A stretch of 35,130 nt of DNA from Bdellovibrionales bacterium. GTDB lineage: Bacteria; Bdellovibrionota; Bdellovibrionia; Bdellovibrionales; UBA1609. Every line of letters starts with the position of its first letter. The stretch's first letter is position 1. The notes under the pieces were generated by a model. That model was not told the DNA's origin, made no database searches, and was given only the letters and a program-made list of their open reading frames with translations. A program made the translations under genes and the position numbers. Shown piece by piece: positions 4,854 through 24,356 of the stretch. The stretch covers positions 1 to 35,130 of the forward strand of contig JABSOQ010000024.1 in the NCBI GenBank assembly GCA_013216195.1. The letters are read 5' to 3'.

Positions 4854-5474
4854 CTAGCTTTTCAACTGCCCTAGTAAATCGGGGTTCGTCTCTAAAAACC
4901 GCCTCAAGGCTCTCGCCATTGTGTCGGCCTCCAAAGTCACGCCATCGCCGGGTTTCAGCTCACCCAGGTTTGTACGCTTCAGGGTCTCAGGAATCAAGCA
5001 AACCTCACAAGTTTCTGGAGTGATTTCATTTACTGTAAGACTCACTCCATTGATCGTGACACTGCCCTTTTTCCAAATCATGGGCCTTAAGACCTCAGGG
5101 TACTTAACTTCTAAAAACCAAGAGCCGTCTACCTCCTCAGATCGAACCACTGCGCCCATGGCATCTACGTGACCTGCAACCATGTGCCCGTGAACCCTAT
5201 CACCAACCCGAAGAGAGCGCTCAAGGTTAAACAAGCCTGATTGCATGGAATCAGTTGTCCAACCCGTGACCTTCAAAGTTTCAGCAGCCAGGGCAAACTG
5301 AATTTCAGAATCTGTAAACTCCTCGACAGTGAGGCAAACCCCATTAAAGGCAATACTGTCACCTGTCTTGAGATCATCAAAATCGGCTGGCTTCTGCACT
5401 CTTATTTGCAAAATCGAGCCCGTTTGAGAGAGCGAATTGATACGAGTTGTGGCTTCTACGATACCTGAAAACAT
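4854..5474 (-). CDS. ribE: Riboflavin synthase, alpha subunit
   Basis: A 206-residue protein made of two similar lumazine-binding halves, as in all riboflavin synthases. The first starts MFSGIVEA and contains FNGVCLTVEEF; the second contains GHVDAMGAV and INGVSLTVNEI. It dismutates two lumazines to riboflavin. The ATG at 5474 is preferred over a GTG at 5495 because the family begins with M-F-[ST]-G-I. It is the first gene of the minus-strand operon ribE-ribB-ribH-small ORF-ntrY-ntrX; no ribD is present in the window. The 130 bases upstream are shared with the divergent operon at 5605. I see no FMN riboswitch there. Confidence 0.96.
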   Translation of the reverse strand: MFSGIVEATTRINSLSQTGSILQIRVQKPADFDDLKTGDSIAFNGVCLTVEEFTDSEIQFALAAETLKVTGWTTDSMQSGLFNLERSLRVGDRVHGHMVAGHVDAMGAVVRSEEVDGSWFLEVKYPEVLRPMIWKKGSVTINGVSLTVNEITPETCEVCLIPETLKRTNLGELKPGDGVTLEADTMARALRRFLETNPDLLGQLKS

Positions 5475-5576
5475 GGCGTAAGTGTGCCAGATCACCGAAG
5501 AATGTCACTTCTGTGTGCCAATATTTGAAAACATAACAGTGTCGTCTAACGTAGAGCAAGAAAGAACGGTGAGAGA

Positions 5577-5604: not shown

Positions 5605-6687
5605 ATGGGCTCACGATTTTATGGCAATATCAAAAATCTCACAGGCATGGCGGCTATAGCTTTGCTGAGCTCGAGCACAGCTCTCGCTTCACCATTCGAT
5701 TTTCACTGGCCAAGTGTTTTACAGCGTAGCTGTGACTCTCAAATGTTGCCTGCCAGCTCGAAGGGCTACCGTGTGGCCACAGCCCCTGTGGTTCCGATGA
5801 TTTCAGCCGCTGAAGAGTTCTTGATTCAGCAAGAACAGCTGATTGATGGGCAAAAGGTTGAATTTCTGTTTCATGGCCGCCTCGAGCTGGATGGCCGCCT
5901 TACACTTGATTTTGAACTAGTTGATCACGCAAAGCAAATTAGGAGCAGCATACGGGGGCTAGAAGCATTTGCTGAGATGATGGAGCACCTTGGCTCCGAT
6001 AGAATGGTCTACGTGCAAAGCGACTGGAGCAGCGCAAGCAACAACCATGCGAGCTTTATCAACAACGTTATCGGAGGAGCCTCACCACAACAAGCAGCCC
6101 TTTCAACTTGGACGGCAAGGCAGCTACAAAACTATGGTTTTGATAGTGTCGAAAAGATCTGGTTCGAGCCGAAATCTACAGAGAAAATCAGAGAAATACT
6201 AGATGGAGTTCGAGAGGCTTCGCTTGATGATTTTACTGTGAACGTGATTTTCACAAGGAGCAGTCAGAGGGAGACTCAGCTCAATGGACCACTTGCAGAG
6301 TTATGGAGCTCAGACGGCAGTAGAGTCTGGCTGGTTGATTTGGTGTTTGGCTATAGACTTGGATTGGGCTTCGCAGAAAACCATATTGAGATTCTCGACG
6401 CGAGCCAGGTTACAGGTCAGCACGGCTCAAATCAGTCTCTGCTCGATTTGCAAAAAATTATTGATCAAATCAATGCTTACCTCTCGAGCCCTGGGCGGCC
6501 AGCAAGCCTGTCGGTAGGAGTTAGCCGAGATCTTTACAAAGCTCTCAGCACATTGAGGCCTTTTGGCCCACAAACAAAACTTGGAGACTTTCAACTCTCT
6601 TTGCTTGGCAAAATCTTGGCCAAGTACAATATGCTAGCCGATTCGGTATCAAGCTCTGGACGAGACTACGAGGTGATCTTTCGATGA
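5605..6687 (+). CDS. Exported protein of unknown function, paralogue of the gene at 7787
   Basis: A 360-residue protein with an N-terminal signal-like segment (hydrophobic part near residues 15-29, ending TALASP). The middle (about 108-185) matches the third gene of this operon: VDH..K.RS.IRG.EA, HLG.DR, W..AS.NH.SF and AA..TWT....L..GF..V. A second shared block lies further on (PL..W.S.G...WL.D..FGY.LGL.F). The block with tryptophan, NH.SF and TWT resembles, from memory, a domain found at the C-termini of polymorphic toxins; I cannot name it and have not searched for it. There is no Shine-Dalgarno, and the sigma-54 promoter at 5577-5592 ends so close to the ATG that the mRNA should be nearly leaderless. 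Its stop overlaps the next start (ATGA). Confidence 0.85.
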   Translation: MGSRFYGNIKNLTGMAAIALLSSSTALASPFDFHWPSVLQRSCDSQMLPASSKGYRVATAPVVPMISAAEEFLIQQEQLIDGQKVEFLFHGRLELDGRLTLDFELVDHAKQIRSSIRGLEAFAEMMEHLGSDRMVYVQSDWSSASNNHASFINNVIGGASPQQAALSTWTARQLQNYGFDSVEKIWFEPKSTEKIREILDGVREASLDDFTVNVIFTRSSQRETQLNGPLAELWSSDGSRVWLVDLVFGYRLGLGFAENHIEILDASQVTGQHGSNQSLLDLQKIIDQINAYLSSPGRPASLSVGVSRDLYKALSTLRPFGPQTKLGDFQLSLLGKILAKYNMLADSVSSSGRDYEVIFR

Positions 6688-7790
6688 AGATTGCAGTCTC
6701 AATATTGCTGACATCCTTGATTATGCCAAGCCAATCTGGCTTGGCCGAAGGGCTCAATGGTTCCGAATGGACCTTTACAAATGATCGCATGTTGAATGCT
6801 GAAAACACCAACAACATGCAAGCCTATCAGATTGAGGTGATCGCTAAGTGGCTACAGAGAATTGCAGCCCAATGTGCAAGTTGCTCTGTCAATCTTGATA
6901 AAAGTGAATTCACTCTTGAAGGCGATTTGACGCTGAACGTGTTTCCCGACAACCGAGTGCTTGAATGGAACATAACCGCAGCCACTTCAACGCGACTTCG
7001 AAGCTACGAAGAGCTTTTACAGAGGCTAATCTGGGACACAGCTAAAGGGCTCGGCCTTTCACCTCACGAGCGAATCGGAGGTGGCCATATCACACTCGAT
7101 TCTGCAACACACTTCGCTGGCGACGAATTGCTCGAGCGCAACTTTTTGGCTGACACCCTCAACCACCCTGAGCTTTCGATAGGCGGGCTAGGCCTCGTCA
7201 ATGGTGGTGCAAAGCCCGCAGCCGTTCTTGAGCCACATATTCTTGAGGCGATAGCTGCTGAATTTAGCAAGTTCGATGAGGGCCTGATCGACATCCATAA
7301 ACTGAGAGACAACATCGACACTCACTATGCCCATTCTGAGGTCGCATTTAGTGGTAACAAAAATCATGCGATGAACTTGGTGCGCCGAGGTCGCACAGAG
7401 TTGAGAGCTATCAAACCGCAAACTAGCATGAGGCAATATCTAGCCATTCTTGATCTGATCGAAGGGCGGATCGCCTATCTCAAGAAGTTTCGGCAGCCCA
7501 TACCTCTTCAGGTGCCAGACTATCGGAGCCTGTACAGGTTTCACCGCGACGAAGATTTCAAAATGATTATTGAAAACAAGGTACCCGCACAGCTCATCGT
7601 AAATGTGTTCGCACGCTACGTGATTGAATCTGGTCAAGACTGGAATGATTTTAGAAATGACCTGGCTGACCCTAGATTGATTGGTCTTCGACCCCAGGGC
7701 TTTGTTGGCTCACTGTCAGCGAGTCGTAAGCAACTGCTGTGCCCTGCCATTTTGACCGAGCCGACAAGGCGAGGTGTAGTGCAGCAATGA
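6684..7790 (+). CDS. Exported protein of unknown function, middle gene of operon
   Basis: A 368-residue protein with a signal peptide (hydrophobic residues 4-20, cleavage probably after GLAE). It is unrelated in sequence to its two neighbours. A central motif IGGGHITLD, followed by ELLERNFLADTLNHPEL and GLGLVNGGAKPAA, faintly recalls amidoligase/glutamate-cysteine-ligase-like proteins, which often carry a GxGH motif. This is weak and I do not assign a reaction. A CxxC pair (CASC) lies near residue 71. Both ends overlap the neighbouring genes by four bases (ATGA), so all three proteins are probably made together. The origin of the family and any partner in the cell envelope are unknown. Confidence 0.85.
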   Translation: MKIAVSILLTSLIMPSQSGLAEGLNGSEWTFTNDRMLNAENTNNMQAYQIEVIAKWLQRIAAQCASCSVNLDKSEFTLEGDLTLNVFPDNRVLEWNITAATSTRLRSYEELLQRLIWDTAKGLGLSPHERIGGGHITLDSATHFAGDELLERNFLADTLNHPELSIGGLGLVNGGAKPAAVLEPHILEAIAAEFSKFDEGLIDIHKLRDNIDTHYAHSEVAFSGNKNHAMNLVRRGRTELRAIKPQTSMRQYLAILDLIEGRIAYLKKFRQPIPLQVPDYRSLYRFHRDEDFKMIIENKVPAQLIVNVFARYVIESGQDWNDFRNDLADPRLIGLRPQGFVGSLSASRKQLLCPAILTEPTRRGVVQQ

Positions 7791-8851
7791 TCTCTCGGCA
7801 CCGTAGATACTCTTACCTCATCATTATTGCTTTCGTAATTGGCCTGGCCACTGAGCCCGTGATGGCAGCTCCTTTTTTATTTTCTCCCGCTCGAATCATC
7901 CACTTCTGCAAAAACCTCTTGGGCTATGGAGACCCCAAAACCTATAAGGTTCAAAACAGCCGCGTTCGTACCAACACTTCGACTGCAGACTACTACGGCG
8001 AATGGCAAAGTACCGCTGAAGCCGGCAGCTCTGAGAACTTTCACTTCTATGCCTACCTGCAAGACGAGGGGCTTTTGAGAATATTTGCCAGGCTTGTAGA
8101 TCATCAAAACAAAACCCGAAGTAAGATCCGCGGAAAAGAAGCACTTGATAGAGCTCTAAGGCACCTTGGTACCGACCGCATTAATGAAATTGAGGGGCAA
8201 TGGCATGCCTCGAGTGACAATCATGTCAGCTTTCGAAACGCACTGTTTGCTGGTGAAACACCTACTGATGCCGCCTACAAAACATGGACGGGAAAATTGG
8301 CTGAAGAACTTGGTTTCACTCAAGTACGGAGCATTCACGTCGCTGAGAGAGTGCTCACCATTAAGGGCCAGCCCGTAGGCAAAGCCCCGCCACCTGAAAT
8401 GAATTCTGAAAACCCCACCGACCTCAAGCAATTTGTCTACTTTGTTAGATTTGTGAAACCAACTGAAGCTCCAAAACTTCTTCAGCTTGACTCTCCCTTG
8501 TTGGCCAAATGGTATTCGGGTGGGCGAAATTTGTGGCTAACAGATATATTCTTTGGGTACCAGCTCGGCCTAAAATTCGAGAGCGATCAAATCAAGCTAC
8601 TCAACGGCTCGAAATACGAAGATGATAACGGGGTTTCTAGTGAACTGTTTAGCGTGGCAGAGCTCGTTGACGGTTTGAATTACCTACTCGACCCAGCCAA
8701 CGAGGGAACAGAGCGTGCAGAAAAAATCAAGGCTCACTACCGGTATGCACTAGAATCTTTGCAAAGGCTAAACAGGCCCACGACACACTTTGATACCTCG
8801 GGCTCAATACTGCTCGATGTGCTTGAACGCTACAGGCATGTCATCTTGTAG
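7787..8851 (+). CDS. Exported protein of unknown function, paralogue of the gene at 5605
   Basis: A 354-residue protein with an N-terminal signal peptide or anchor (hydrophobic residues about 10-26, ending VMAAP). The start at 7787 is chosen because its ATG overlaps the preceding stop (ATGA), as at the other junction of the operon; an upstream in-frame start exists but would lie inside the middle gene. It shares the full layout of the 5605 gene: VDHQNKTRSKIRGKEA, HLGTDR, W.ASSDNHVSF, AAYKTWTGKL.EELGF, then WLTDIFFGYQLGL. The TWTGK form is closer than its paralogue to the toxin-like domain remembered from polymorphic toxin C-termini. The gene ends 25 bases before the convergent clpB, with no evident terminator between them. 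Confidence 0.85.
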   Translation: MISRHRRYSYLIIIAFVIGLATEPVMAAPFLFSPARIIHFCKNLLGYGDPKTYKVQNSRVRTNTSTADYYGEWQSTAEAGSSENFHFYAYLQDEGLLRIFARLVDHQNKTRSKIRGKEALDRALRHLGTDRINEIEGQWHASSDNHVSFRNALFAGETPTDAAYKTWTGKLAEELGFTQVRSIHVAERVLTIKGQPVGKAPPPEMNSENPTDLKQFVYFVRFVKPTEAPKLLQLDSPLLAKWYSGGRNLWLTDIFFGYQLGLKFESDQIKLLNGSKYEDDNGVSSELFSVAELVDGLNYLLDPANEGTERAEKIKAHYRYALESLQRLNRPTTHFDTSGSILLDVLERYRHVIL

Positions 8852-8876: not shown

Positions 8877-11474
8877 CTAAACGACTTTGATCATCACTTT
8901 CAGATCATTTGCCTCAAGCTTAACTGTGTCGCCTGAATTCACCTTTCCAGAGATCAATTCGGTTGCCAATGGGTCTAACACCTCATTTTGAATAACTCTC
9001 TTTAACGGCCTGGCACCGTAGAGCGGGTCAAACCCTCGTTTGCTCAAGAACTCAACAGCACTTGGTTGCCATTCAAGGTTGATCTTCTTTTCTTTCAGTC
9101 GCTTTTGAACTTCATTGAGTTGAATCGAAACGATTCCACTAATCTGCTCCTGCCCAAGACTCTTAAACGTTACGGTTTCATCGATTCTATTAATGAACTC
9201 AGGTCTAAAGGTCTGCTTCATTGCCTCAACTACAGCAGCTTGCTTGGCCTCATCATCAAGAGATTCATCGATCAGGGCATGGGCACCCACATTGCTGGTC
9301 ATAATGAAAACCGTATTTCGAAAATCTACAGTTCGCCCCTGCCCGTCAGTCAATCGGCCATCATCTAGAACCTGCAGCAAGACATTGAAGACATCTGGGT
9401 GCGCCTTTTCGATCTCGTCCATTAGAACGACTGAATAAGGTCGTCTACGCACTCTCTCAGTAAGCTGACCACCCTCTTCATAGCCCACATAACCTGGAGG
9501 CGCCCCGATAAGTCTCGCAACTGAATGTTTCTCCATGTACTCGCTCATATCAATTCTGACGACCGCTTCTTCCGTGTCGAACATGAACTCAGCTAATGCC
9601 TTAACGGTCTCAGTTTTACCGACCCCTGTGGGGCCTAAGAAAATAAATGAGCCAATCGGTTTGTTCGGGTCTGATATCTCAGCTCTAGCTCTCCGAATGG
9701 CATTTGAAACGGAGTGCAAGGCATGATCTTGACCCACAACACGCTCACGCAAATTGTCTTCCATAGTGAGCAGCTTATCTGATTCACTCTCAAGCATCTT
9801 TTTGACTGGCACGCCAGTCCACTTCGCAACAACTTCAGCAATCTCTTCAGGCCCAACCTCTTCTTTTAGTAAACGACCTTCGTCGTCATTGGCATCTCCG
9901 CCCTTGGCCGAACGCTCCTCATGATCTTTTAACTGCTTTTCAAGACCCGGCAGCTCTCCGTAGCGCAGTTCCGCTGCTCTTTCGAGATTGCCCTGCCTCT
10001 CGGCTTGCTCCATCTCGACCTTCAGAGTTTCAATGCGCTCTTTGATACCTTTTACGCCACCAATTTCAGACTTTTCTTTCTCCCACTGGGCTGAAAGCTC
10101 TTTGTTTTTTTCGTCGAGCTCTTTCAACTCAAGCTGAAGAGCAGAAAGCCGCTCTTTCACTTCGCTTGAAGACTCTTTCTTTAGCGCCTCTCTCTCGATC
10201 TGCAGCTGCACCATCTTTCTCTGAATTTCGTCGATCTCTTGTGGAACTGAATTGATCTCAATACTCAGCCGAGACGCCGCTTCGTCCATAAGATCAATGG
10301 CTTTATCAGGCAAAAACCTAGAAGTGATGTAGCGATGTGACAGCTTCACAGCATTCAATATGGCAGAGTCAGTGATTCTGACCCCATGATGGACCTCATA
10401 TTTTTCTTTCAGACCTCGCAAGATCGTGATGGCATCGTGAACAGAAGGCTCTTCAACAAGCACGGTTTGAAAGCGTCTCTCGAGAGCTTTGTCTTTTTCG
10501 ATATACTTCTTGTGCTCATCTAATGTTGTAGCTCCAATACAGCGGAGCTCTCCCCGAGCGAGAGCCGGCTTCAGAATCTGACCGGCATCCATGGCGCCAT
10601 CGGTTTTACCAGCCCCGACAAGTGTGTGAATCTCATCGATGAACAAGACAATCTCTCCCGCCGAATCTGTGACTTCTTTGATCACAGCTTTCAATCGATC
10701 TTCAAACTCACCACGATATTTCGCTCCAGCGATCAGGGCACCCATATCAAGAGCCATCAGTTTTTTGTTTATCAATACACTTGGCACATCACCGTTCACG
10801 ATGCGTACCGCAAGCCCCTCAGCTATTGCAGTTTTGCCGACACCCGGCTCACCTATTAGCACTGGGTTGTTTTTTGTTCGTCTTGATAGCACTTGAACAA
10901 CTCTGCGTATCTCTTCATCTCTACCCACTACGGGGTCGAGCTTGCCATCTGCTGCTAGCTCTGTAAGGTCTCGTGCATACTTCTTCAGGGCATCAAACTT
11001 GTTTTCAGGGTTATCATCTGTGACTTTTTGAGAGCCTCTCATTTTACCAAGAGCTTCTTTAAATGCCTCTGGCCTCAGGCCACCTTTTTCTAAGGCACCG
11101 ATCACACTCTTAGGGCCGACGCTGAAAGCAGACAACACAAAGTGCTCAGTGCTAATGTACTGATCGCCCATGTCACCGGCCTCTTTTTCGGCCTGATTGA
11201 ACACTTTCACTAACTCTGGGCTGGCCACCACCTTGACCCCTTCGCCAGATACCTGCGACAAACCGTCAATAACGTCAGTCAAAGCCGATTTGATTGAACT
11301 CAGGTCACCACCTGCTGAAGAGGCTACGGAAGGCACAATGCCTCCGGGCTGACTCATCAATTCAAATACAAGATGGGCAACCTCAACTGAGCTATGGCCG
11401 GCTCTTTCGGCAGCCTTAGCAGCTGTCTGCATGGCCTCTTGGCTCTTTTGTGTCATTTTCTCTATGTCGTTCAT
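8877..11474 (-). CDS. clpB: Protein disaggregase ClpB
   Basis: An 865-residue Hsp100 chaperone, normal length for ClpB, which with DnaK pulls proteins out of aggregates in the cytoplasm. Order of parts: Clp N-domain (about 1-145), first AAA+ domain with Walker A GEPGVGKT near 208-215 and Walker [10 protein letters not shown], the long charged coiled-coil middle domain that separates ClpB from ClpA and ClpC (about 400-525), and a second AAA+ domain with GPTGVGKT near 610-617 and [14 protein letters not shown], then the C-terminal domain. The start follows AAGGA with suitable spacing. It is a single-gene unit facing 11610 across 135 bases; I could not make out a convincing heat-shock promoter there. 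Confidence 0.97.
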
Positions 11475-15908: not shown

Positions 15909-16655
15909 ATGGCCAAGAAGAAAGCAACAAAGAAGAAAGCTGCTAAAAAAACAGCCAAAAAGAAGACCACTAAGAAAAAGACAGCCAAGAAGGCCACCAA
16001 GAAAAAGGTGACCAAAAAGAAGGCAGCTAAAAAGGCCACAAAAAAGAAAGCGGCCAAGAAAACCAAAAAGAAAGTAGCCAAAAAAGCTACGAAAAAGAAG
16101 GCTACCAAAAAGAAGGCCACCAAAAAAAAGACGGCCAAAAAGGCAACTAAGAAAAAAGCTGCGAAGAAGGCTACCAAAAAGAAAGCCACTAAAAAGAAAG
16201 TAGCGAAAAAGGCCACCAAAAAGAAGGCGGCCAAGAAAACCACTAAAAAAGCTGCGAAGAAGACCACAAAGAAAGCCGCGGCAAAGAAAACTACAAAAAA
16301 GGCCGCTGCAGACACCAAACCGAAGAAGCCAGAAAAGCCGAAGGTTCCAAGCCTTGAGGAGATTGCAGCAGACTCAACTCAACTCATAGCTTCGGGTAAC
16401 CCCTTTATTGTAAAAGATCAAAGAGACAGCGCTCCAGTCAATGAGGCTAGCGAGGACGCTGCCGACCTACCTCCCGCTGAATTTGAGGAGTACACTGAAG
16501 ATGAAGACTTGGAAGCGAGCTTCGAGAGTGTGAGTGACCAAATGGATGAGTCTCTCGACCCTGTCGATGAGGCTGACGAAGACGGTTTCGATGATCTCGA
16601 GGACGATGACACTATGATGGATGTCGAAGACGATGATGAAGGTGGGTACTTCTGA
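15909..16655 (+). CDS. Histone H1-like lysine-rich protein with acidic tail
   Basis: A 248-residue protein of two opposite halves. Residues 1 to about 135 consist almost only of Lys, Ala, Thr and Val in repeats such as KKAAKKATKKK, as in the C-terminal tail of eukaryotic histone H1 and bacterial H1-like proteins. Residues from about 165 to the end are strongly acidic (EEYTEDEDLEA, DDLEDDDTMMD, ending EGGYF). The basic half should bind DNA or RNA without sequence preference. The acidic half could fold back on it, bind partners or limit DNA binding. A Shine-Dalgarno GAGGAG precedes the ATG, and a strong terminator follows. A role in nucleoid compaction is inferred from composition. Repeats make the exact length prone to assembly error. 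Confidence 0.85.
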   Translation: MAKKKATKKKAAKKTAKKKTTKKKTAKKATKKKVTKKKAAKKATKKKAAKKTKKKVAKKATKKKATKKKATKKKTAKKATKKKAAKKATKKKATKKKVAKKATKKKAAKKTTKKAAKKTTKKAAAKKTTKKAAADTKPKKPEKPKVPSLEEIAADSTQLIASGNPFIVKDQRDSAPVNEASEDAADLPPAEFEEYTEDEDLEASFESVSDQMDESLDPVDEADEDGFDDLEDDDTMMDVEDDDEGGYF

Positions 16656-22448: not shown

Positions 22449-24356
22449 TTAGAATACCGATTCATCAGACCTTTGGTAGTCGATAAAATAGATACGACGA
22501 GCCAGTTGCCAGCTCTTGTCTTCATCTTGATGAAACATCAGAAGAGGGTAAACAAAGGTGGCTGACCCTTCTCTTCCCCAAAAACCAGGCTCCTTGGCTT
22601 GCTCAAAGTAATCATAAACCTCTTCTTCAAAGCTGAGCTCTTCTCGCTCTACCAGTGAACGAAAACGGTCGGGGTCAAAACTCATCACAACTTCGACAAA
22701 CTCAAGCCAACCCTCTACGACTCTGCTATCAGCGAACAACAATCTGGTTAAAAGGCTTGAGTGCTGACGTATTTTCCTTAACAACTTCTGGGAGGTGCCC
22801 TGTGGGTAAACCTGTTGCTGACTGAAACTCCGATCCGCGACGGCGACTTCGCTTGTGCGGTAGAGCAAACTGTGCTGAGCCGCAGTTGCTTTGAGGCTCA
22901 GCATGTTGACGAACTCTACCATGAACTTGTAGCGAAAAAACTCAGTTGAGAAACCGGGCTCAAAACGATCGATCTCGTCGATAAGCTTAAAGTAGCTCCA
23001 AGTCATGTCTTCCGTCATTTGAGCATATTCAAAAAGACCGGCATAAAGGCCGTCATAATCTCGAGCTTCACCCCGAAGTTGAGCATCATGAGAAAGCTCG
23101 CCAATAACCCTCGCCGTTGAGAGCCATTGATCACCAACATCGATCATGCCCTTTTGAAACGGCATCTGTAGCAACCAATAAATCGGAGATTGCTCAATCA
23201 CTCGAATGGCAAACTTCTGCATACCAAAATCAGATTTTTGGGCCAAATCGAGAGCTAGCTTTAGCAAGAACCGATTGAAGATGATTGTCTCTGTTGGTCT
23301 GAAGGTGAAAATGCGCTGGTTTGAAATAAGACCTAGAAAGTAACTGAGCTTGAAGCCCGTATCAAAACTCGGGTCTCTGGCAAATGCCTCAAAAATTTGT
23401 AATATCTTGATTGGTAATGCGTTTGGCTCATAATTGGGCAAACCGGCTTCTGCTAGCTGCTCCCATTGATCAATAGGAATCGGGCTATCAAACAAGTCGA
23501 GTACAGCCAGTTTCTGCTGAGCTCCCATCTTCTTCCAAGCCCTGAAGTTTTTCTTTCGCCACGCACTCTCTTCATGAACTTTGGTGTTCAGCACCAAAGA
23601 GACCTCGCCAACAAAAGCCTCAAGTGGCCCAGAATCGGTTTCAACTCGCTCGGCGAAGCCTCTGTTGTCAGCCATCATTCCTTTTTGTACGCCTGTTGGG
23701 CCATGAATACCATGGGGCTGATTGAATGCGGGGTAAGCTGAAATCAAGCGCCCACTTCTTTTGTCGACAGCAATTTTCACGTTGATTTCTGTCTCGTCTG
23801 TGCGGGTTACCTGGGCTTCAAACAGAAGGGCCCACCCCTTATCTTCCATAGCCCCTTGTTGAAATACAGCCTTGATGATCTCTTCGAGCTCGTCCTGATC
23901 CATGTCTCTTGGGAACAGTGTCTTCCAAAGATAACCACCATTGTGATTGATATCAGTCATCAACAAAGACTTTTTCTGAGCGGTGTTAAATGCCGAGTTT
24001 GGTAGTCGCACATGCCCCACACCATTGATAGCGTTTTGCATCACAAAGTACCAAGAACCCAGTGTCTTATCTGCACTGTCGACCTCGATCTTCTTAGTGC
24101 CGAGCTCAAAAATATCGTCTCTTTTTGCCATAAAAGCTTCTAGCCCTGCATAAGTGTGCATTCCGCCCTTCAGCCAAGCCCTCTTGGTAGTTGGGTTCTG
24201 CCCAAAATCACCTTGTAAGATGTGTTTTAGGGCTTTTTCAGTGATGACAATTTCTGTTGGTCGCCTGTGCATCTCATCGACACAAGACACTGTAGGTTTC
24301 GGGTTAGCCTGGGCCGAAAGCGCTACAAACAGCACTGTAAGAAGCAACCATTTCAT
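22449..24356 (-). CDS. Exported protein with N-terminal EndoU-like nuclease domain
   Basis: A 635-residue protein with a clear signal peptide (MKWLLLTVLFVALSAQA). Residues 36-210 resemble the bacterial EndoU RNase domain of polymorphic toxins: KHILQGDF with His45, KGGMHTYAGLEAF with His67, NGVGHVRLP, KTLFPRD with Lys145, a DELEEIIKAVF helix and SGRLISAYPAFNQ. Two histidines and a lysine form the EndoU active site. The remaining ~420 residues match no family I know, look helical and may serve as a delivery or binding part. Unlike usual toxins the nuclease is at the N-terminus, and no small immunity gene lies beside it. The sigma-54 promoter at 24369-24384 gives a nearly leaderless start. Homology is judged from motifs by eye. 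Confidence 0.8.
   Translation of the reverse strand: MKWLLLTVLFVALSAQANPKPTVSCVDEMHRRPTEIVITEKALKHILQGDFGQNPTTKRAWLKGGMHTYAGLEAFMAKRDDIFELGTKKIEVDSADKTLGSWYFVMQNAINGVGHVRLPNSAFNTAQKKSLLMTDINHNGGYLWKTLFPRDMDQDELEEIIKAVFQQGAMEDKGWALLFEAQVTRTDETEINVKIAVDKRSGRLISAYPAFNQPHGIHGPTGVQKGMMADNRGFAERVETDSGPLEAFVGEVSLVLNTKVHEESAWRKKNFRAWKKMGAQQKLAVLDLFDSPIPIDQWEQLAEAGLPNYEPNALPIKILQIFEAFARDPSFDTGFKLSYFLGLISNQRIFTFRPTETIIFNRFLLKLALDLAQKSDFGMQKFAIRVIEQSPIYWLLQMPFQKGMIDVGDQWLSTARVIGELSHDAQLRGEARDYDGLYAGLFEYAQMTEDMTWSYFKLIDEIDRFEPGFSTEFFRYKFMVEFVNMLSLKATAAQHSLLYRTSEVAVADRSFSQQQVYPQGTSQKLLRKIRQHSSLLTRLLFADSRVVEGWLEFVEVVMSFDPDRFRSLVEREELSFEEEVYDYFEQAKEPGFWGREGSATFVYPLLMFHQDEDKSWQLARRIYFIDYQRSDESVF

What the first reader, a model, noticed from the sequence alone, without database searches (positions are those of the whole stretch)
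5605..8851. Two paralogous exported proteins flanking an unrelated third in a tightly overlapping operon
Genes 1 and 3 share a mid-protein block (HLG.DR, W..S.NH.SF, TWT..L..GF) and a later block (WL.D..FGY.LGL). From memory, the first resembles a C-terminal domain of polymorphic toxins. Gene 2, with a GGGHI motif, is unrelated. All junctions are ATGA. Duplication around an unrelated gene suggests a three-part system working together.
Basis: partly seen in the sequence, partly recalled or inferred. Interest (0 to 1): 0.7.

Follow-up and report, generated by a model that had tools for sequence, protein, structure and literature searches.

The report
Exported proteins sharing a toxin domain
A Bdellovibrio-type bacterium carries three overlapping genes for exported proteins, two of them duplicates that share a domain with the killing end of bacterial competition toxins and the third a distant relative of amide-bond-forming enzymes; the set looks like an acquired pack of effectors aimed at other cells, but its activity is untested.

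Summary
In detail: genes 1 and 3 are paralogues over their whole length (29% over 342 aa), gene 2 is unrelated, both junctions are ATGA overlaps. In relatives the ~120-aa domain is the C-terminus of CdiA-type, Rhs/HINT and eCIS polymorphic toxins, often followed by a small immunity-like gene. No Pfam or NCBIfam model describes it; its confident AlphaFold model looks GNAT-like, with a degenerate acetyl-CoA loop. Gene 2 belongs to a widespread exported family (47 of 368 genomes) remotely related to Amidoligase_2. The conserved three-part system fails: the two families adjoin nowhere else examined, the C-terminal halves of genes 1 and 3 are private to this genome, and the block sits between clpB and ribE, which nearly touch in several relatives. 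Best reading: an accessory cassette of exported effectors without immunity gene. Toxicity, chemistry and joint action are inferred.

The parts
5605..6687 (+). gene 1: exported protein, 360 aa, paralogue of gene 3
5848..6198 (+). toxin-type domain in gene 1
   Evidence: profile matches
6238..6684 (+). C-terminal extension of gene 1, shared only with gene 3
6684..6687 (+). ATGA stop/start overlap of genes 1 and 2
6684..7790 (+). gene 2: exported protein, 368 aa, remote relative of amidoligases
7077..7094 (+). GGGHIT motif of gene 2 (GGGHIH in most relatives)
7787..7790 (+). ATGA stop/start overlap of genes 2 and 3
7787..8851 (+). gene 3: exported protein, 354 aa, paralogue of gene 1
8021..8347 (+). 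toxin-type domain in gene 3 (model core residues 84-189, last strand 214-223)
8435..8845 (+). C-terminal extension of gene 3, shared only with gene 1
4854..5495 (-). left flank: riboflavin synthase-like gene (ribE; name by recall)
8877..11474 (-). right flank: clpB-like gene (name by recall)

Best explanation
The block is an accessory operon for three exported proteins. Genes 1 and 3 arose by duplication and each carries, in mid-protein, a ~120-aa domain that in other bacteria is the C-terminal effector domain of polymorphic toxins. The domain most likely has a GNAT-like fold and modifies a target by group transfer. Gene 2 is an exported relative of amidoligases (ATP-dependent amide-bond formers). 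Shown: homology of the domain to polymorphic-toxin C-termini, remote relation of gene 2 to amidoligases, exported-type N-termini (by rule), no immunity-like gene in the window, a block lying between genes that nearly adjoin in relatives. Inferred: that the proteins leave the cell and act on prey or competitors, that the domain is still toxic, that the three act together, and the chemistry. Export would keep the proteins out of the producer's cytosol, so no immunity gene would be needed; and since acetyl-CoA and ATP, the usual cofactors of these folds, are cytosolic (established knowledge), active versions would have to work inside another cell.
For: Profile of 17 outside proteins hits both genes, also with the selecting motif removed; no hit among reversed sequences. 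Domain at the end of CdiA-, Rhs/HINT- and eCIS-type proteins. Small gene 3-30 nt downstream in 14 of 21 such loci, 0 in the Bdellovibrionota loci or the window. Model pLDDT 91, pTM 0.81; best solved matches GNATs; bridge proteins with Acetyltransf_1 plus the domain's C-terminal motif. Gene 2 family versus Amidoligase_2: hhalign 96.5%, E 7.6e-10, controls 0.4% or less. clpB-ribE spacing 97-238 nt in four relatives, 3.4 kb here.
Against: No activity data. The domain is internal here, with a private extension, not C-terminal. Profile-profile comparison with 17 GNATs fails (0.2%); fold scores are middling (E 3.5e-3, Z 5.7-7.4); the GNAT donor loop is degenerate. Gene 2 lacks the second His of GGGHIH and no Pfam model detects any of 23 family members. 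The three genes are not together elsewhere, so joint action rests on overlap alone.
Confidence: 0.5

Rival explanations
1. Domesticated domain: genes 1 and 3 use the toxin-derived domain for a task in the cell's own envelope (binding or modifying a surface molecule), not as weapons; gene 2 likewise serves as a binding protein.
For: Internal position of the domain and private extension; altered donor loop and altered motif in gene 1; no immunity gene; cofactors are absent from the periplasm (knowledge).
Against: Sporadic spread (14 of 368 genomes) and private insertion suit accessory weapons better than housekeeping.
Confidence: 0.25
2. No joint function: gene 2 and the pair 1/3 are separate accessory effectors that happen to be packed with overlapping ends; the two families meet only here.
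For: Families not adjacent in any of 35 other regions examined; gene 2 family far more widespread than the domain.
Against: Two consecutive ATGA overlaps suggest translational coupling, which usually accompanies joint use.
Confidence: 0.4
3. Paralogue pair of unequal partners: gene 3 is the active protein and gene 1 a degenerate partner or regulator that pairs with it.
For: Gene 1 departs at 4 of 16 conserved columns, gene 3 at 1, the other 21 rows at 0-2; the two domains are sisters in the tree (94/82).
Against: Most rows were collected by a pattern that demands several of those columns, so the contrast is inflated; among rows not so collected G312 also has TWTA and G272 TFFV.
Confidence: 0.08

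Closest known systems
C-terminal domains of polymorphic toxins (CdiA with PT-VENN or DUF637, Rhs with PT-HINT, eCIS_core effectors)
   Same: The ~120-aa domain is homologous
   Different: Here it sits inside small exported proteins with a private C-terminal extension, without delivery module, pretoxin domain or immunity-like gene
GNAT acyltransferases
   Same: Predicted order of strands and helices; GNATs are the main solved matches
   Different: No Pfam hit, no profile-profile support, degenerate donor loop (RSxIRG instead of [QR]xxGx[GA]; that consensus recalled), different conserved residues (N, TWTG)
Amidoligase_2 (PF12224)
   Same: Gene 2 family aligns over 172 columns including the E, GGGHIH and ExR regions
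   Different: Exported, with conserved cysteines; too far for Pfam detection; gene 2 itself has GGGHIT
Secreted two-gene effector systems of Bdellovibrionota (PMC12419801, passages seen)
   Same: Small operons of predicted secreted effectors in the same phylum, some including an acyltransferase
   Different: Those are built round Lipocone domains; the passages seen do not mention this domain or an exported amidoligase partner

Membership tests
Polymorphic toxin effector (genes 1 and 3) | domain homologous to the C-terminal domain of toxins with recognised delivery modules | tested here: met
   E 1.3e-22 and 9.6e-19 with a profile of outside proteins only; 8e-12 without the selecting motif; modules in 7 of 9 long relatives scanned
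Polymorphic toxin effector (genes 1 and 3) | delivery or pretoxin module in the same protein, toxin domain at the C-terminus | tested here: not met
   No Pfam or NCBIfam domain in genes 1 and 3; ~130-aa extension follows the domain. So they share the domain but are not filed as polymorphic toxins
Polymorphic toxin effector (genes 1 and 3) | immunity gene next to the toxin | tested here: not met
   Immunity-like families found at 14 of 21 outside loci, none in the window or the Bdellovibrionota loci
Polymorphic toxin effector (genes 1 and 3) | toxicity in a target cell | not testable with these tools
   needs expression
GNAT superfamily (the domain) | GNAT fold | tested here: inconclusive
   Model pLDDT 91; Foldseek 2i79 E 3.5e-3, prob 1.00; VIA Z 5.7-7.4, rmsd 3.3-5.1, 95-125 aligned, below the level the tool calls safe
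GNAT superfamily (the domain) | acyl-CoA loop [QR]xxGx[GA] (consensus recalled) | tested here: not met
   Alignments show RSxIRG in the window genes and unlike loops in CdiA-type rows
GNAT superfamily (the domain) | sequence similarity to GNATs | tested here: not met
   hhalign 0.2%, E 0.35 against 17 GNATs of the genome; Pfam none; only a bridge in G027
Amidoligase_2 (gene 2) | profile similarity to the family | tested here: met
   hhalign 96.5%, E 7.6e-10 over 172 columns, controls 0.4% or less; smaller sets 49% and 82%
Amidoligase_2 (gene 2) | curated Pfam score | tested here: not met
   0 of 23 family members listed under PF12224 at E up to 0.1; 0 matches of PF12224 in the own genome. So a remote relative, not a filed member
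Amidoligase_2 (gene 2) | conserved acidic, His and ExR residues (catalytic roles recalled) | tested here: inconclusive
   E28, E94, H135, E239, R241 invariant in 23 rows; second His is T in gene 2
Amidoligase_2 (gene 2) | ATP-dependent amide ligation | not testable with these tools
   needs enzyme assay

The most novel reading that the evidence does not exclude
A so far unnamed polymorphic-toxin effector family with a GNAT-like fold and a non-standard active site (conserved N and TWTG) has been taken over in Bdellovibrionota as immunity-free, exported effectors; here two copies are coupled to an exported amidoligase, so that molecules of prey or competitors are modified by two different acyl-transferring or amide-forming enzymes delivered together.
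Probability: 0.2. Interest if true: 0.75.

Novelty: new variant of a known kind. Interest (0 to 1): 0.55.

Why it matters
It links a domain that sits at the business end of three unrelated toxin delivery systems, yet matches no Pfam or NCBIfam model, to small exported proteins of Bdellovibrio-type bacteria, whose effectors are mostly unknown. It also uncovers a widespread exported amidoligase-like family in that phylum, which is odd because such enzymes need ATP. Both give testable entry points: a toxicity assay with the small downstream partner of a relative, and an enzyme assay.

Tried and rejected
Weak P0001 hit in G007 (E 0.005) lies in a methyltransferase/reductase-like frame (read by eye): chance. 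Weak NCBIfam and PDB-sequence hits for the proteins and profiles: E 0.04 or worse, unrelated. PHROGs and PADLOC: nothing for five proteins. Plasmids and phages by tblastn: no relatives (one search matched only 31 N-terminal residues). E. coli genomes by blastn with one P. corrugata stretch: none. Viral contigs: two profile scans without relatives, one pattern hit, L033. C-terminal extension elsewhere: four marginal hits (E 0.001-0.006) in frames of 638-1235 aa, taken as chance. GNAT by profile-profile: failed. EndoU idea for the gene at 22449-24356: PF14436 found nothing in the own genome. Literature: no held paper has all the terms for a GNAT-fold antibacterial toxin with immunity protein or for DUF4157/eCIS with acetyltransferase toxin; some searches gave lists, of which passages were read in PMC12419801 and PMC3482391 (none of 'GNAT', 'acetyltransferase', 'Bdellovibrio' in the held text); the others were seen as listing and start of abstract only. 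Iyer 2009 on amidoligases is not held; only its reference-list entry was seen.

Bias: the 25 named loci were picked by a DNA pattern for TWTG..A...G[FY]T.V, so conservation of those columns in A6 and A10 is partly by construction. Rows dropped: L037, L040, L054 (truncated) and L055 (short) from A6 and A10; G134 and G027 from the tree; 18 of the 25 PF12224 matches were used; 20 of the gene-2 places listed were fetched for the neighbour check.

Full report
OBSERVATION. Three frames, 5605-6687, 6684-7790 and 7787-8851, overlap by ATGA at 6684-6687 and 7787-7790. Protein 2 shows no clear match to protein 1. The pair has no other copy in the genome. All three start with a basic residue and a hydrophobic run; this is a home-made rule, not SignalP.

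FINDING RELATIVES. Pfam, NCBIfam, PHROGs and PADLOC have nothing convincing for the three proteins. A two-row profile found four weak relatives in the same taxonomic family (5 of 140 genomes of the order, own included). A six-row profile of the middle region then found 14 of 368 genomes of the phylum, 17 matches including the two in the window. The relatives are mostly small proteins (about 190-350 aa) ending with the domain; 11 of 15 pass the signal-peptide rule. Organism names come only from contigs that reappear in the named collection: Bdellovibrionales and Bacteriovoracia/Bacteriovoracaceae MAGs. The window is therefore from a Bdellovibrio-type bacterium; whether it is predatory is not known.

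TOXIN LINK. One pattern scan of named genomes returned 25 loci: 4 from these bacteria and 21 from others (Pseudomonas, Duganella, Dyella, Tahibacter, Chromobacterium, Sphingomonas, Streptomyces, Micromonospora, Actinocrinis, Nocardia, and MAGs of Acidobacteriota, Planctomycetales, Verrucomicrobia, Elusimicrobiota). In most cases the domain ends the frame; in three Nocardia loci it lies inside giant frames that run off both ends of the stretch, and a fourth (L045) is cut near the domain. Of nine long proteins scanned, seven have polymorphic-toxin parts upstream: Fil_haemagg_2 with PT-VENN (L038, L047) or DUF637 (L056), PT-HINT with Rhs core (L036, L048; the L048 core match is below its cut-off), eCIS_core (L041), and RHS repeat with LysM and He_PIG (L046); two had no hit (L057, L058). 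No model in either library covers the domain itself. The key test: a profile from 17 non-Bdellovibrionota domains was run against 484 proteins; gene 3 scored E 1.3e-22 and gene 1 9.6e-19. With everything from the TWTG motif onward removed, so that the pattern used to collect the rows cannot help, both still score about 8e-12. Reversed sequences gave no hit.

IMMUNITY-LIKE GENE. Directly after the domain, 3-30 nt downstream, the toxin loci carry a small gene of about 80-130 codons. Two groups (weakly alike, hhalign 29%) cover 14 of the 21 non-Bdellovibrionota loci; ten of these built the models and four are independent hits (L037, L040, L046, L054). Misses: four Nocardia loci, L052, L056 (only 66 nt held downstream) and L058, which has a different 132-aa frame. 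None of the 15 Bdellovibrionota regions, the 4 named Bdellovibrionota loci or the window has it. This fits a toxin-immunity pair in kin-directed systems and its absence in exported versions.

FOLD. The domain of a Streptomyces Rhs protein modelled with 23 sequences has mean pLDDT 91 and pTM 0.81; order: strands 22-27, 30-35, 40-46, 51-57, helix 68-82, strand 85-90, helices 94-123, strands 129-138 and 141-150. In gene 3 the core of the domain is mostly confident (blocks of 67-93) while most of the rest is under 60. Foldseek's best solved structure is a GNAT (2i79, E 3.5e-3, prob 1.00), followed mostly by GNATs, with LasI and antizyme among the top rows (that these two are GNAT-like is recalled). 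VIA gives mostly GNAT rows with Z 5.7-7.4 over 95-125 residues at rmsd 3.3-5.1; the gene 3 model gives the same picture, top Z 8.1 for a 2ARH fusion, then GNATs and also Alba-like proteins. These scores are in the range where the tool warns of common arrangements. Profile-profile comparison with 17 GNATs of the genome fails (0.2%, E 0.35), although its short alignment lies in the expected register. A bridge exists: in G027 two paralogous exported proteins carry the domain's C-terminal motif, and the one scanned has Acetyltransf_1 above its cut-off. I therefore call the fold GNAT-like and probable, not established, with a degenerate donor loop.

GENE 2. Its relatives occur in 47 of 368 genomes of the phylum, far more widely than the toxin domain. 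Columns E28, E94, H135, D157, E239 and R241 are invariant in 23 rows; C64, C67 and C353 are present in 21 of 23. 14 of 22 family members in the fetched regions pass the signal rule, and several show a lipobox by eye. Against 18 PF12224 matches, hhalign gives 96.5%, E 7.6e-10 over 172 columns; an unrelated profile, the reversed profile and five column shuffles give 0.4% or less. Smaller alignments gave 49% and 82%. Pfam itself lists PF12224 for 0 of 23. Gene 2 has T at the second His of GGGHIH (H in 17, N in 5, T in 1 of 23).

IS IT A SYSTEM? Six genomes hold both families, but none of 15 domain regions has a gene-2 relative and none of 20 gene-2 regions has the domain. The C-terminal extension of genes 1 and 3 is found only here, apart from four marginal hits. 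In 16 relatives searched for both flanking genes, the clpB-like and ribE-like matches lie within 3 kb of each other on one contig in 9: 97, 164 (same genus), 192 and 238 nt in four, 0.9-2.9 kb in five; in four they are further apart and in three on different contigs. In the window the gap is 3.4 kb and holds the three genes. The gaps of five relatives examined hold other ORFs without relation to ours. So the block looks like a private insertion. In a tree of 32 domains genes 1 and 3 are sisters (94/82, below the starred level), in line with a local duplication.

MECHANISM. Most likely the proteins are exported and act on other cells, with genes 1 and 3 as effectors bearing a group-transferring domain and gene 2 as an amide-forming enzyme. 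The cofactor argument (acetyl-CoA and ATP are cytosolic; established knowledge) favours action inside another cell if the enzymes are active, and the lack of an immunity-like gene agrees. Against this, there is no activity data, the domain is not in its usual terminal place, and loops and residues typical of the parent enzymes are altered, so a binding role is open.

VERDICT. Observation confirmed; toxin memory right; conserved three-part system not supported. A new variant of a known kind: a polymorphic-toxin domain in exported, immunity-free, duplicated form next to an exported amidoligase relative.

Noticed in passing
window 22449-24356 (-): 635-aa exported protein whose N-terminal part (KHILQGDF...GGMHTY) recalls EndoU-type toxin motifs; no Pfam hit and PF14436 finds nothing in the genome.
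   Followed up: partly
window 15909-16655 (+): 248-aa protein made almost wholly of lysine/alanine repeats (AKKATKK type, histone H1-like by eye); no Pfam hit.
   Followed up: no
L035, L036, L038, L041, L044, L047, L048, L053, L055, L057 just downstream of the domain: Small conserved genes that look like immunity genes of this toxin domain, in two weakly similar groups; not looked up in family libraries.
   Followed up: partly
L139 4523-5230 and 6666-7361 (-): Two paralogous exported GNAT-type proteins (33% identical) about 1.4 kb apart in another genome of the family, both with the domain's C-terminal motif.
   Followed up: partly
L112 7650-8864 and 8877-9989; own genome C283:11021-11725: Gene-2 relatives occur as a tandem pair in G035, and a second relative in the own genome has a frame with two stops.
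   Followed up: no
L033 4580-4756 and 4177-4575 (-); L058: A viral contig ends inside the same toxin domain and carries next to it a 132-aa ORF like the one beside the Verrucomicrobia copy.
   Followed up: no
L163 113-1363 (+): In a congener the clpB-ribE gap holds a different exported-looking protein with an HEMAH metalloprotease-like motif, so the spot may be a cargo site.
   Followed up: no
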